Source: a virus. Taken from it: a DNA stretch of 64,000 nt. Position 1 is the stretch's first letter. Each line of letters starts with the position of its first letter. The DNA lies in IMG/VR virus record IMGVR_UViG_3300027888_000004, positions 62,001 through 126,000 of that record; one strand, 5' to 3'. Under the pieces are notes generated by a model. It was not told the DNA's origin, did no database searches, and saw only the letters and a list, made by a program, of their open reading frames with translations. Position numbers and translations under genes: made by a program. Shown here piece after piece: positions 3,124 through 11,991 of this stretch.

Positions 3124-4050
3124 ATGTCCGAAAGACTTCAAAAAATACTCGATGAATTAACAACTACGATGAATAGTACAATGTTCTGGGGTCCACATGG
3201 TTTTAGGCGTCAATCACAAGATGTAATAACTTATTATGACCCTAGAGCAGCTACTGGATGGGAAGATTATGCAACTTATACTGCGATTGGACCTATTGTG
3301 CCCCCTACAACTGCAATTGGTAGTACAATACCAGTAGAAGGTTATGGTCTGACAAATAAAAAAGTTGAAGAACAAGAAGAGGAAGAAAAGGAGCATGAAA
3401 AATTAGCAACTGAGCAACCCGTTCCTTTACAGCAGCCTCCTTCTGTTGGTGAGTTTGATGAAGATACTGAGGATAAAGAAAAGGAAGAAAAGATAAAAAA
3501 GGTTGATATATTACCAAGAAAGATAAGTGAACAACCCGAAGAAGAGGAAGAACCTGTCGAAGAACCTGCGGGTGGTGAAGAAGATATACCAGGTATGCCG
3601 GGAGAAGAGATGCCAGGTGAAGAAGAAGGTATACCGGGTATGCCAGGTATACCAGGTATGCCAGGTGAGGAAGATACAGGACCTGAAACACCAGGAGAAG
3701 TTGGTCGTATTTATGAATTAAAGAAGATATATGCGAGATTAATTTCTCTTGATCATCATCTGTCTTCATCTACTGATGAAGTTCTCCTAAAGTTACGTCA
3801 TATAGTATCTCAATCAATTGAAGTCTTCCGAGTTATGATTGCAAATGTTGATTTGTTTAAGGATAAGATGAATAGTATAATTGTTCTATATTATGAATTT
3901 CTTGAGAGAGTATATACTCTACTAAAGAAATATTATAATGCAAAGACTAAAGAGGAGAGACGGGATGCCAAGATTGAGGATAAACCAGAGAGGGTTTCTC
4001 CTGAATACGGGCCACAGTCAAGTGAGAACCCCCTGTATAATAGAGCTTAA
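3124..4050 (+). CDS. Hypothetical head protein with collagen-like tract
   Basis: This 308-aa protein follows the portal by 12 nt with the ribosome site AAGGAG. Layout: short N-terminal helix (SERLQKILDEL), aromatic segment, long Glu/Pro-rich disordered region (about 80-165), a PGMPGE collagen-like tract (about 165-200), and a helical C-terminal domain. ILDE near the N-terminus could be a prohead-protease site of LxE type. It overlaps the start of the next gene by 86 nt. The composition fits a scaffold or decoration protein; no specific family is recognised. Confidence 0.75.
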   Translation: MSERLQKILDELTTTMNSTMFWGPHGFRRQSQDVITYYDPRAATGWEDYATYTAIGPIVPPTTAIGSTIPVEGYGLTNKKVEEQEEEEKEHEKLATEQPVPLQQPPSVGEFDEDTEDKEKEEKIKKVDILPRKISEQPEEEEEPVEEPAGGEEDIPGMPGEEMPGEEEGIPGMPGIPGMPGEEDTGPETPGEVGRIYELKKIYARLISLDHHLSSSTDEVLLKLRHIVSQSIEVFRVMIANVDLFKDKMNSIIVLYYEFLERVYTLLKKYYNAKTKEERRDAKIEDKPERVSPEYGPQSSENPLYNRA

Positions 4051-4963
4051 TGATTTTAACCGAGATTTAATTTTTAATCAATTGAGATCAGCAGGTATTT
4101 CAAATTATATTATTGATATTCCTGTGGTAATTCAAAGACCTGGCGAGAAAAAAAGAACACAGTCATTTCCATACTCTCTCAATTATAAACCAGACCCTCT
4201 TGACATGAGAGATTATAGAATTTCTAAACTTATTGATAAACCACTCTCTTATTCTCTATCCGTAGATCACACAAGTAAAATGTCTCCAGTAAAAGATCAA
4301 GGTCAAAAAGGTTCTTGCGTTGGTTTTGCAGTTGTTGCGATGAAAGAATGGCAAGAACAAAAAGAACATATTAATGAAATAATAAAGGGAAAGGTATATA
4401 GAAGGAAAGCTAAACACTACGATTTATCAGAGCAATGGTTATATCATAAGACAAAAGAAATTGATGCTTGGCCAAACCAAGAGGGTACAAGTTTTAGATA
4501 TGCTCTTAAGATTCTTCAAAAAATGGGAGTTCCGCCTGAAAAAGCATGGCCATATAGTGATAGAACTTTAGGTAGTCCAAAAAGGTGGGCTAAAATGATT
4601 GCCCTTTGGACTATGTGTGGTCACTATTATAGACTAGAAGGCATAAAGCAGATTGAATGGACATTGAGTAATATTGGACCATGTGTTGCTGGGATTGGTT
4701 GCTATGAAGAGATATTCTTCGTTGGTAATGATGGATATGTGCCATATCCAGCAAGATCAGATATCCTCTATGGTGGTCATGCCATATGTCTCGTTGGTTA
4801 TGATTCTAAAAAGAAATTAGTTAAATTTAAGAATTCATGGGGAACAAATTGGGGAGAAAAGGGTTACGGTTATCTCTCTTATGATTATATCAATGATTTC
4901 TGTTGGGATGCTTGGGCGGTAAAAGATATTAATGTTACAAAGGAGATGCTTAAAAGCAAATAA
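3965..4963 (+). CDS. Papain-like (C1 family) cysteine peptidase
   Basis: This 332-aa protein starts at ATG 3965 behind GAGGAG; an upstream ATG at 3938 has no such site. The C1 catalytic set is visible: oxyanion Gln112 and Cys118 in DQGQKGSC, His272 in YGGHAICLVGYD, Asn290 in FKNSWGTNWGEKGYG. No signal peptide is present. The N-terminal 60 residues resemble the small protein at 191-487. Placement between portal and prohead protease suggests a virion component or a maturation protease. A role in attacking host proteins after ejection is equally possible. The family call is firm; the role is inference. Confidence 0.9.
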   Translation: MPRLRINQRGFLLNTGHSQVRTPCIIELNDFNRDLIFNQLRSAGISNYIIDIPVVIQRPGEKKRTQSFPYSLNYKPDPLDMRDYRISKLIDKPLSYSLSVDHTSKMSPVKDQGQKGSCVGFAVVAMKEWQEQKEHINEIIKGKVYRRKAKHYDLSEQWLYHKTKEIDAWPNQEGTSFRYALKILQKMGVPPEKAWPYSDRTLGSPKRWAKMIALWTMCGHYYRLEGIKQIEWTLSNIGPCVAGIGCYEEIFFVGNDGYVPYPARSDILYGGHAICLVGYDSKKKLVKFKNSWGTNWGEKGYGYLSYDYINDFCWDAWAVKDINVTKEMLKSK

Positions 4964-9087: not shown

Positions 9088-10251
9088 TCACCTAGAATGT
9101 ACGATACCCAATTTTTCTTCTTCATATGGAGCGGATATCGGTAGTCCTTCTAACTCCCTCCACTTCCTCCAGAAGTCAAGAAGAAATATTTTGAGCATAT
9201 AGCGAATACTCATATTCTTTATATGGTTATCGCTTATGATATTACTCAAGACAAACTTCTTTGCTTCTTTTAGAGTTGGTTGTTTTTTCTGTTTTGCCAA
9301 CCATTTCTTACATAACTCATATTTCTCAGAGTTAATGGTCAGGGTTCCCTCAGAATCATGGGGGTCTTTTTTATAGAGGATTTGTTTTTGCCTTAGAGCT
9401 CTTATGAAGAACTCCCTTCTTCCCTGCATTCTAGTTCTGTAATCATAGAAAATAGGTGAATAAATATTATCTTGCTTACGAAGGAAACTGGTTGCCAGGA
9501 CATGGAGTTTTGTTTTTAGGTATGGGGAATATGTTATACTCTTCTTTGTTTTGGTTTTACCAGACTTATCTGTATATTCCCTATCGACTAAGTGGTGAGA
9601 TTTCTTACTTCTACCTTCTCCTCTGACAACCTCTTCACCTTCGATCTCATCTAGAGTCCATACCACGTCAAGACCAGCATAACTCCAAAATGCGGTGACA
9701 TGGTTTGCCCTATGAGGATCAAGTTCGCTCACAAGAACGCCGCCCATTGTAGGACCAACTCCTTCAAGTCCTTTCAGGAATTCTGTCCAGATTGGAAACT
9801 CATCAAGAAATTTCTCAATTTGCTTATTGATCTTGTACTCCTGTTTGACAAGAGATATATAGGTGTCAACAAATATAAACATAATTTCACCAGAGATTAT
9901 ACCAGGGTGTGCATCCTTCATAATCTTAGGAATCTCTTTCATGTTTATCACAACACCGTCAGTGATTCTCTTGTATTCTCTAGAGATAAGTCCCATTAAC
10001 TCTTTTGGGAGACCATAAAGACCTTCTTTCTTTTCTCCCGGTTTTAGTCCAAAGCGACGATATAGATTACCAAGAATCCTATTTCCCATCCTGATCCTAT
10101 CCCTCTGAATATCGTCATATCCTCTAATTAATCCTCTCAATTCAATCTTTGGACTCCACAACTCAGGTACAGGTTGCACAGGTATGCTAAAACCTCTGCC
10201 CTTGAAAACATCTGCGATTGATTTTATAGGTTCTAAAACTTCCTTAGCCAT
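9088..10251 (-). CDS. IS110/IS116-type transposase-domain protein lacking the RuvC-like domain
   Basis: This 387-aa protein carries the C-terminal Tnp domain of IS110-family transposases: helix-hairpin GLEGVGPTMGGVLVSEL (about 161-177), then FWSYAGLDVVW (about 189-198), then a Ser/Lys/Gly-rich segment with SITYSPYLKTKL (about 238-249). In IS110 enzymes that region carries the nucleophilic Ser; Ser238 and Ser242 are candidates. Residues 36-68 (IELRGLIRGYDDIQRDRIRMGNR) match the coiled-coil linker that normally follows the N-terminal DEDD RuvC-like domain, but that domain itself is missing: only about 35 residues precede it. No terminal repeats or second insertion-sequence boundary are seen. 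The gene starts at the edge of a 1.5-kb array of short boxes (10265-11813). A normal transposition role is unlikely; an RNA- or DNA-binding role tied to the array is plausible. Confidence 0.8.
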   Translation of the reverse strand: MAKEVLEPIKSIADVFKGRGFSIPVQPVPELWSPKIELRGLIRGYDDIQRDRIRMGNRILGNLYRRFGLKPGEKKEGLYGLPKELMGLISREYKRITDGVVINMKEIPKIMKDAHPGIISGEIMFIFVDTYISLVKQEYKINKQIEKFLDEFPIWTEFLKGLEGVGPTMGGVLVSELDPHRANHVTAFWSYAGLDVVWTLDEIEGEEVVRGEGRSKKSHHLVDREYTDKSGKTKTKKSITYSPYLKTKLHVLATSFLRKQDNIYSPIFYDYRTRMQGRREFFIRALRQKQILYKKDPHDSEGTLTINSEKYELCKKWLAKQKKQPTLKEAKKFVLSNIISDNHIKNMSIRYMLKIFLLDFWRKWRELEGLPISAPYEEEKLGIVHSR

Positions 10252-10264
10252 AACACTTCTCCTT

Positions 10265-11813
10265 GGTTCACTATATATATATGGGATTCTTTAATTCGAT
10301 GGTTCACTCTACGTGCCGGTACGTCTCGATTCTTTGGAATCGGAAACACGCTTCTCTTGGTACACTACAATTTATTGATTTTTCTTATTCCTTGGTACAC
10401 TTTTTCTTCTAGATTTTTTAAGAGATATAGGTTCACTCATGTTCGTTGGATACTGCGGACTTCTGGTTCACTCCGGATGTTTGAATTTTATCAAATGATG
10501 GTTCACTGCCAACAAATGGTTTTTCCTTGCCAATACGGTTCACTTTTGAGTTCTGATTTTTTTGTGCTTGAAGGTCCACTTTATAGAAATGGGTTGCTGT
10601 AATTACATGGTTTACTAACACCCACAGGATTTCTCCCAATTCTAGGTTCACTTTTTTCTTCGGAATATTCTCCCCCACCTGGTTCACTTATCGTCTTAGG
10701 TTGTTTATCCATTCCGGGTTCACTCGGCAATTGGGTTTTTACTACGTAACTTGGTCCACTCCAACGCGCTGGGTTTCTGCGAGAGGACGGTTCACTCTTT
10801 TTTCAGGTTAATCTCCCCCACTTGGTTCACTCAAATTTTTGGGTTTCTGACATTTTATGGTCCACTCCGTGTCGCTGGATTCCTCTGCTCCCTGTTGGTT
10901 CACTATTCAAAAATTGGTTTTTTTCCTTAGATTGGTTCACTCCGGCGCACTGGGTTTCTGTTGCTGGGTGGTTCACTTGGTGAATGTGAATTATTACAGG
11001 GGAATGGTCCACTTTATCATATTAGATTTTTTTCGTCGTTGGTTCACTTTGAAAAATGGGTTTGCATGACTTTTTGGGTTCACTCAGTCATCATGAATAA
11101 CTGCCTTCAACTGGTTCACTGCAGCTCCCAGGTTTTCTCCGGGCTTATTGGTTCACTGGACTATAATGGTTTAGCTGTAGACTTTGGTTCACTTTCATGT
11201 ACGGGATTTTCTAGCCAACGTAGGTACACTCCTTGCATCGGTTACCTGATATGCTATGGTTCACTTAACAATGATGATTTTTTGTGTCTTTATCTGGTTC
11301 ACTTTCCAACGATGGGTTACTTCGCCAAAACGGTCCACTCAAAAATCCTGGTCTTCTGGCCTCGCTTGGTTCACACTAATTTCGGATTGGTACACTCTAA
11401 GGTGCCCTGCACCGACTGGTTTTTTACACTTTCCTTGAATGGTTTTCTCGCCCAGACCGGTTCATTCCCGTTTTCTGGTTATTATCCTCACTTCTGATTC
11501 ACTCGCCACGTCTGAGTTTTTTGATCACTACTGGTTCACTTTCGTCATTTGATTTCTGCTCAATTTTGGTTCACTTAAGATTCTTAGATACTTCTTTATC
11601 TTGGTTCACTAGACTGATTGGATTAATTGTACCACAGGTTCACTCGGCGGGTATGAATTTTTCTGGATGCATGGTTCACTCATTCTGTTTAGATACTGAT
11701 AAAGTTAGGTTCACTGAGGTTAGGAGGGTTCCTATTTCTCTCCTTTGGTTCACTCTCTCGCTCAGGTAATCTGTTTCACGATGGTTCACTTTGCAGAATA
11801 AATTACTAAAAAA
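10265..11813 (+). repeat. Degenerate two-box repeat array, about 43 units of about 36 bp
   Basis: Box 1, GGTTCACT (variants GGTCCACT, GGTACACT, GGTTTACT), recurs from 10265 to 11783 about 43 times. The spacing averages 36 and is usually 34-39. Exceptions are a 58-nt gap after 10301 and irregular units at 11368-11459. Halfway through most units lies box 2, TGGRTTTCT or a close variant, so a TGG occurs roughly every 18 nt. Between boxes are two variable segments of about 9 and 10 nt that differ in every unit inspected. Units of 35, 36 and 37 break any reading frame, so the array is not coding. It begins 14 nt upstream of the IS110-like start codon and ends at a terminator hairpin at 11808-11840. 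A TATATATATA tract inside the first unit (about 10272-10281) could be a divergent promoter. Confidence 0.9.
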
Positions 11814-11840
11814 AAGTACTCATAACGAGTACCTTTTTTT
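11808..11840. terminator. Bidirectional terminator bounding the repeat array
   Basis: GTACTC (11816-11821) pairs with GAGTAC (11827-11832), flanked by an A-run on the left and a T-run on the right, so it can end transcription from either side. It follows the last repeat unit directly. It would end a plus-strand array transcript, or a minus-strand transcript of the tRNA-like RNA. Confidence 0.85.
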
Positions 11841-11848
11841 CTAAAGGG

Positions 11849-11991
11849 TGGTAGGGGGTGGGAATCGAACCCAAAGACGGTATTGGCAGTTGAAAGGAGG
11901 AAAGACCGCCAACTTTGGAAAAGAGTCCTCCCGACCGTCTTGGATGGTGGTAGAACAACCATCCAGCATTCCGGTTGCCATTCCCCCTACC
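11849..11991 (-). ncRNA. tRNA-like structured RNA with a giant variable domain
   Basis: On the minus strand, the 5' end GGTAGGGG pairs with CCCCTACC at the 3' end (8 bp), followed by A and no encoded CCA. A near-canonical T-arm (GGG, loop TTCGATT, CCC) precedes it. An anticodon-like hairpin lies at 11941-11965, with an 8-9 bp stem and a loop containing TTCTA. A short D-like arm (GGC, AACCGGAAT, GCT) lies before it. Between the anticodon-like arm and the T-arm is a domain of about 65 nt closed by AGACGGT/ACCGTCT. At 143 nt it is far longer than a normal tRNA. It could be a tRNA with an inserted domain, an intron-containing tRNA, or a tRNA mimic. The T-arm and acceptor are the firm parts. Confidence 0.7.

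What the first reader, a model, noticed from the sequence alone, without database searches (positions are those of the whole stretch)
9088..11840. RuvC-less IS110-like protein beside a 43-unit two-box array: candidate multi-guide RNA system
IS110 recombinases use a bridge RNA with two short guide loops. Here a protein that keeps the IS110 coiled-coil linker and Tnp domain but lacks the RuvC-like domain starts 14 nt from an array whose every unit has two conserved boxes and two variable 9-10 nt segments. The array ends at a terminator. Two variable segments per unit echo the two guides of a bridge RNA, but repeated about 43 times. If the units are transcribed and processed, this would be a new guide-RNA array type, perhaps for targeting, modification or exclusion without DNA cleavage. 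The adjacency and unit structure are seen; the function is inference.
Basis: partly seen in the sequence, partly recalled or inferred. Interest (0 to 1): 0.96.

Follow-up and report, generated by a model that had tools for sequence, protein, structure and literature searches.

The report
Phage TIGR-TasA dual-guide RNA array
A large phage carries a long array of paired short guide segments next to a nuclease-free guide-binding protein; this belongs to the TIGR-Tas family described in 2025, and comparison with related phages shows that some of its guides are conserved, which gives a handle on their still unknown targets.

Summary
It is not a new array type: the locus meets the sequence-testable features of TIGR-Tas (Faure et al. 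2025, PMC12045711), subtype TasA. A profile of the protein family matches solved TasH (4.9e-54) and TasR (1.6e-45) far better than IS110 transposases (8.4e-10). Array: 42 edge repeats (AGTGAACC and variants), 38 regular units of 34-39 nt, each with two ~9-10-nt spacers and a degenerate loop repeat. A DNA-only search with the edge repeat found 101 viral stretches, 58 with a Tas gene. Not found in the paper's main text: the phage carries a second array 143 kb away without a Tas gene beside it, three related contigs hold it at the same place, and some spacer pairs are conserved beyond the neutral expectation. No target was found in 25 TIGR contigs (2.95 Mb) or E. coli rRNA. Inferred function: guided DNA binding without cleavage.

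The parts
9088..10251 (-). tasA: 387-aa protein with Nop / IS110 C-terminal-type core and no nuclease domain
   Evidence: Pfam PF02371; phmmer 9mty 3.2e-13, TasH 1.4e-5; family profile TasH 4.9e-54, TasR 1.6e-45, IS621 8.4e-10; AlphaFold2 model, pLDDT 79.1; Foldseek best TasH/TasR
10265..11790 (-). TIGR array: 42 edge repeats, 38 regular dual-spacer units, 3 irregular intervals
   Evidence: strand from 52 of 52 co-directional array/tas pairings
10259..10264 (-). ribosome-binding site AAGGAG abutting the last edge repeat, 7 nt before the tasA start codon
   Evidence: sequence; same layout (edge repeat, then GAGGAG) in L003
10309..10366 (-). irregular 58-nt interval with an imperfect palindrome (ACGTACCGGCACGT); L003 has a similar interval near the same end of its array
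11377..11466 (-). irregular intervals of 20 and 70 nt, with a GGTGC-AGG-GCACC hairpin; with the next unit (down to 11340) readable as a three-spacer unit; counterpart in L003
11808..11840 (.). terminator-like hairpin with T runs on both strands, between the tRNA-like element and the array; upstream of the array on the tas strand

Best explanation
It is a TIGR-TasA system of a large tailed phage. The array is probably transcribed in the direction of tasA and cut within the edge repeats into ~36-nt tigRNAs, each with two ~9-nt spacers between box C/D-like motifs. A TasA dimer would hold one tigRNA; spacer A pairs with one DNA strand and spacer B with the other, opening an ~18-bp site. TasA has no nuclease, so the effect would be occupancy and bending of the target: blocking transcription or replication. 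Shown here: anatomy, family membership by sequence and predicted fold, gene-array association, co-direction, conservation of some spacer pairs. Carried over from the published family: processing, dimer, two-strand DNA pairing. Inferred: targets lie outside the phage genomes searched, most likely in the host chromosome or in rival mobile elements, and both arrays of this phage serve the single TasA.
For: Family profile hits solved TasH and TasR first, IS110 second; so does the predicted fold, then IS621, then weakly Nop5. No room for RuvC: the profile position that aligns with TasR residue 122 falls near residue 45 here; only 33 residues, with one helix (2-18), precede the long helix 34-66. Unit length 36 in 711 of 1045 parsed units over the array loci (only spacings of 33-40 were kept). 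Array and tas on the same strand in 52 of 52 pairings, near-identical contigs included. DNA-only pattern: Tas gene in 58 of 101 viral but 2 of 46 cellular stretches; in 22 of 26 whole records. Spacer pairs shared with L003: 3 differ at <=1 and 5 at <=2 of 18 positions, against 0.06 and 0.35 expected at the 39% divergence of 4-fold sites of tasA.
Against: No RNA data. No target found: in the units' own contigs the predicted layout gives 0, 0, 20, 409 sites at 0-3 mismatches, three control layouts 0, 1-2, 17-25, 339-345; in all contigs 0, 14, 485 at 0-2 against 0-2, 19-25, 423-453. Structural matches are modest in global terms (TM by query 0.36-0.44, rmsd 8-16 A for the ten best) and the model's alignment had 24 sequences. 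The loop repeat is degenerate. No promoter is evident: 17 nt separate the hairpin from the first edge repeat. 38 regular units is more than the 5-15 most often reported. Most units have no counterpart in L003.
Confidence: 0.9

Rival explanations
1. A decayed IS110 insertion sequence whose bridge-RNA region expanded into a repeat; a transposase remnant.
For: Pfam Transposase_20 domain; the two best PHROGs families are annotated 'transposase'.
Against: Intact ORF conserved at 83% protein identity in L003; profile and fold match Tas better than IS110; the same array-gene pairing recurs in many viral contigs.
Confidence: 0.02
2. A box C/D sRNA-like system that guides RNA binding or modification (rRNA, tRNA) instead of DNA binding.
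For: Box-like motifs around two short guides; weak fold resemblance to Nop5 (E 0.15 and worse).
Against: Exact matches of 1045 distinct spacers (25 TIGR contigs) to E. coli 16S+23S rRNA are not above shuffled spacers: 17 sense and 9 antisense against 20.2 and 12.9; E. coli is not the host, so the test is weak. None of 9 neighbouring window proteins matched an RNA-modification family in PHROGs. The studied Tas relatives act on DNA and TasR did not cut RNA (PMC12045711).
Confidence: 0.06
3. TIGR-TasA whose guides regulate the phage's own genes.
For: A nuclease-free binder could act as a regulator. In the own contigs, sites with 3 mismatches were more frequent in the predicted layout (409 against 339-345), a weak excess that I did not resolve.
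Against: No perfect or one-mismatch own sites in the predicted layout in 25 contigs, the 277-kb contig that contains this array included.
Confidence: 0.08

Closest known systems
TIGR-TasA with dual-repeat array (Faure et al. 2025, PMC12045711; example FpTIGR)
   Same: solo Nop-type protein; [quoted passage not shown] units of about 36 nt; ~9-nt spacers; phage carriage; array beside the gene
   Different: 38 regular units (paper: most often 5-15; several relatives here are as long, e.g. L089 with 42); degenerate loop repeat; hairpin-bearing and three-spacer irregular intervals; a second array 143 kb from tas in the same phage; insertions in TasA relative to most homologues
TasH and TasR (PDB 9w04/21kl, 9mty)
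   Same: Nop core by profile and fold
   Different: they carry N-terminal HNH or RuvC nuclease domains; this protein does not
IS110-family recombinases (IS621, ISCro4)
   Same: coiled coil and C-terminal domain; RNA with two short guides (the latter from PMC12045711)
   Different: no RuvC-like domain here; an array instead of one bridge RNA; more distant in profile and fold
Archaeal box C/D sRNP (Nop5)
   Same: Nop fold, weakly matched
   Different: acts on RNA with partner proteins (established knowledge); partners not looked for here beyond

Membership tests
TIGR-Tas | Nop-domain Tas protein | tested here: met
   profile TasH 4.9e-54, TasR 1.6e-45; Foldseek TasH/TasR best
TIGR-Tas | dual-repeat array with two ~9-nt spacers and ~36-nt units beside tas | tested here: met
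   38 regular units, 17 of them 36 nt; 711 of 1045 units at 36 nt across array loci
TIGR-Tas | box C/D-like motifs that agree between edge and loop repeats | tested here: inconclusive
   edge AG..ACC; loop AG start 24 of 38, CC or TC end 38 of 38; L003 AG 39 of 50, CC 45 of 50, but my parser scored for these letters. The paper's TasR motifs are UG..CCA; it states that motifs diverge between loci and covary within one
TIGR-Tas | array processed into 36-nt tigRNAs bound by Tas | not testable with these tools
   needs small-RNA sequencing
TIGR-Tas | two-strand DNA targeting | not testable with these tools
   no natural target identified
TIGR-Tas, subtype TasA | no RuvC or HNH domain | tested here: met
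   no nuclease family in Pfam at E <= 1; short N-terminus
IS110 | N-terminal DEDD RuvC-like domain | tested here: not met
IS110 | catalytic serine of the C-terminal domain (recalled) | not tested
   its position was not located in the alignment
CRISPR-Cas | 25-36-nt repeats with spacers of similar size | tested here: not met
   8-nt edge repeat and two ~9-10-nt spacers per unit
CRISPR-Cas | cas genes | not tested
   no search was run
box C/D sRNP | fibrillarin and L7Ae partners | not tested
   no dedicated search was run

The most novel reading that the evidence does not exclude
This phage lineage runs a guide programme from two separate arrays (60 parsed units on the 277-kb contig) served by one nuclease-free TasA, partly in trans, with guides kept by selection and shared between the arrays, aimed at slowly evolving host sites: RNA-guided host take-over without DNA cleavage.
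Probability: 0.25. Interest if true: 0.85.

Novelty: new member of a known kind. Interest (0 to 1): 0.5.

Why it matters
The natural targets and the role of nuclease-free TasA are open in the founding paper, which says that genuine targets are hard to identify because loci are mostly metagenomic (discussion). A phage lineage with related arrays, drifting orthologous spacer pairs and a second array without tas gives a comparative way in: a true target should fit both the window's and the relatives' version of a pair. It also shows array evolution directly: unit turnover, loop-repeat change beside conserved spacers, and units common to two arrays.

Tried and rejected
Targets in own and other TIGR contigs: layout 5'-spacer B, gap 0-3, reverse complement of spacer A-3' (gap 0-2), against control layouts or shuffled pairs: nothing clear. 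Excesses seen and not resolved: three mismatches, L003's units on their own contig 36 against 22 for shuffled pairs, but the opposite-strand layout of the window's units also rose (85 against 62.7), 409 against 339-345. Two perfect sites both fell in a control layout.

Viral-collection scans for targets of three conserved pairs gave 10, 2 and 0 stretches. The 10 fall into seven places once near-identical or similar contigs are joined; the places share no DNA or protein beyond the site. Five of the seven have no gap between the halves. No chance expectation is given by the tool; I judge them chance.

Codon-like spacing of differences between related spacers: within-spacer distances divisible by 3 in 13 of 48, no signal. 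Positions 3, 6 and 9 hold 39 of 87 differences, a post hoc choice of frame, not pursued. For that count nine cellular loci were dropped as repeat-type matches (L138, L140, L145, L148, L151, L152, L155, L158, L160).

rRNA targets: no excess in E. coli 16S/23S. The host was not identified: no TasA relative among cellular contigs by the protein scan; no match in the phage collection for TasA or for window bases 1-25000; window bases 25001-64000 were not tried.

Cellular pattern hits: 46 stretches, 2 with a Tas gene; the other 44 were not examined one by one, and some look like short-period repeats. In one search the duplicate stretches L039, L068, L091, L099, L104 and L108 were left out.

Full report
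What is there. The window is part of a 141,943-base virus record. The ORF at 9088-10251 (-) encodes 387 aa. On the same strand, just upstream, 10265-11790 holds 42 copies of an edge repeat (AGTGAACC and close variants), forming 38 regular units of 34-39 nt and three irregular intervals. A regular unit reads edge repeat, about 10 variable bases, a loop repeat of the form AG...CC, about 10 variable bases. Chance does not make this: 30 exact copies in the window, 29 of them in the array, against 1.91 expected.

What the protein is. Pfam sees only the IS110 C-terminal domain. phmmer against solved structures gives 9mty (3.2e-13) and TasH (1.4e-5); 9mty is the TIGR-TasR complex (title). A profile of 24 homologues gives TasH 4.9e-54, TasR 1.6e-45, IS621 8.4e-10, ISCro4 4.3e-9. 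The AlphaFold2 model (24 sequences, mean pLDDT 79.1, pTM 0.73) has TasH and TasR as its ten best Foldseek matches (E 6.2e-8 to 4.0e-5), then another TasH chain and IS621 (1.5e-3), then Nop5 (0.15, weak); the global TM-scores are modest (0.36-0.44 by query for the ten best). The position that aligns with TasR residue 122 is near residue 45 here, so a RuvC domain of TasR size has no room; by the paper's naming this is TasA.

Association in relatives. A DNA-only pattern of three spaced edge repeats found 101 viral and 46 cellular stretches. An iterated profile search of their ORFs found Tas genes in 58 of 101 viral and 2 of 46 cellular stretches; among the 60 viral stretches of 8 kb or more, 40 have one. 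Of 26 whole records chosen for their arrays, 22 have a Tas gene; the four without (G004, G005, G006, G018) are records of 30-73 kb, probably fragments. Array and gene share a strand in 52 of 52 pairings, near-identical contigs included. Two homologues, in L107 and L050, have N-termini that look HNH-like by eye, but Pfam reported no HNH.

Two arrays. Contigs of 277 kb (G001) and 224 kb contain the window's array identically. G001 has a second array at 75563-76508, about 143 kb from the first, with no Tas gene in the stretch around it (L082); the whole contig has one Tas match, at the first array. G004, G005 and G006 come from related phages: 77 of 102, 43 of 59 and 32 of 44 of their mechanical ORFs of 80 aa or more match G001, and their arrays sit between counterparts of the same two G001 genes. 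One unit of the window's main array has both 9-nt spacers identical in arrays of all three while its loop repeat differs. The paper's main text has no hit for 'orphan' or 'second array'; it describes arrays upstream and/or downstream of tas and, for a stem-loop system, three subarrays. Its supplement was not seen.

Spacers are selected. L003 (83% identical TasA) has 50 regular units. Among 36 units of the main array used here, 7 have a counterpart in 48 units of L003 at <=3 of 18 differences, 5 at <=2 and 3 at <=1. Four-fold degenerate sites differ at 44 of 112 (39%) in tasA and 76 of 237 (32%) in the major head gene. Had all 36 units been inherited and drifted at 39%, 0.35 would be expected at <=2, 0.06 at <=1 and 1.35 at <=3. 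The reference rate rests on one gene (it would be laxer at 32%) and counterparts were picked by similarity; but one shuffle of the pairing over 890 distinct pairs gave none at <=2 (3 at 3, 9 at 4), while shuffled L003 pairs gave a mean of 1.97 at <=5 against 7 seen. Most units have no counterpart, so turnover is high too. Between different loci there are 39 pairs at 1-4 differences; those at 4 are near the chance level.

Targets. With the geometry that I derived from the paper (8-nt 3' overhangs and the C-5 rule), neither the own contigs nor all 25 contigs show sites clearly above control layouts; weak excesses are listed under what was tried. E. coli rRNA shows none. That the guides aim at the host or at rival elements is inference from exclusion plus conservation. 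The host is unknown.

Literature. PMC12045711: abstract, main text from introduction to discussion, figure legends, two methods sections and search passages. PMC12385481: passages only. Searches for TIGR-Tas, tigRNA, TasA, TIGR array and Tas names showed, by the titles listed, no other primary paper on these systems; one search listed 20 of 402 papers, and the library lacks most subscription journals and bioRxiv. The TasH structures were seen only as PDB entries.

Verdict. A well-spotted system of a known kind: a TIGR-TasA locus with a long array, a second array in the same phage lineage, and conserved spacers that make the target question approachable.

Noticed in passing
window 11849-11991, minus strand: tRNA-like RNA of about 143 nt with a tRNA-type 3' end (GGTTCGATTCCC...CCCCCTACCA) and extra helices; ARAGORN and Rfam at gathering do not call it; a tRNA-Sec match is below threshold (22.3 bits against 47, E 0.031). 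L003 has a counterpart of similar folding energy.
   Followed up: partly
L011 16780-16859 (G001 about 76.8 kb); L181 3131-3210: In 2 of 4 pieces with the second array a tRNA-His gene lies about 275 nt upstream of the array on its strand, recalling the tRNA-like element before the first array; none is called there in L183 and L184.
   Followed up: partly
L003 4390-4665: A 91-aa ORF with its own ribosome-binding site sits inside the array between two edge repeats; PHROGs phrog_16275, unknown function.
   Followed up: partly
window 10309-10366 and 11377-11466: Irregular array intervals with palindromes and a readable three-spacer unit, with counterparts in L003; role unknown.
   Followed up: partly
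window 11791-11807: Only 17 nt separate the terminator-like hairpin from the first edge repeat, so the array's promoter is unexplained; L003 has a longer gap there.
   Followed up: no
window 3938-4963: Phage ORF matching a PHROGs peptidase family (5.2e-27), next to the head maturation protease.
   Followed up: no
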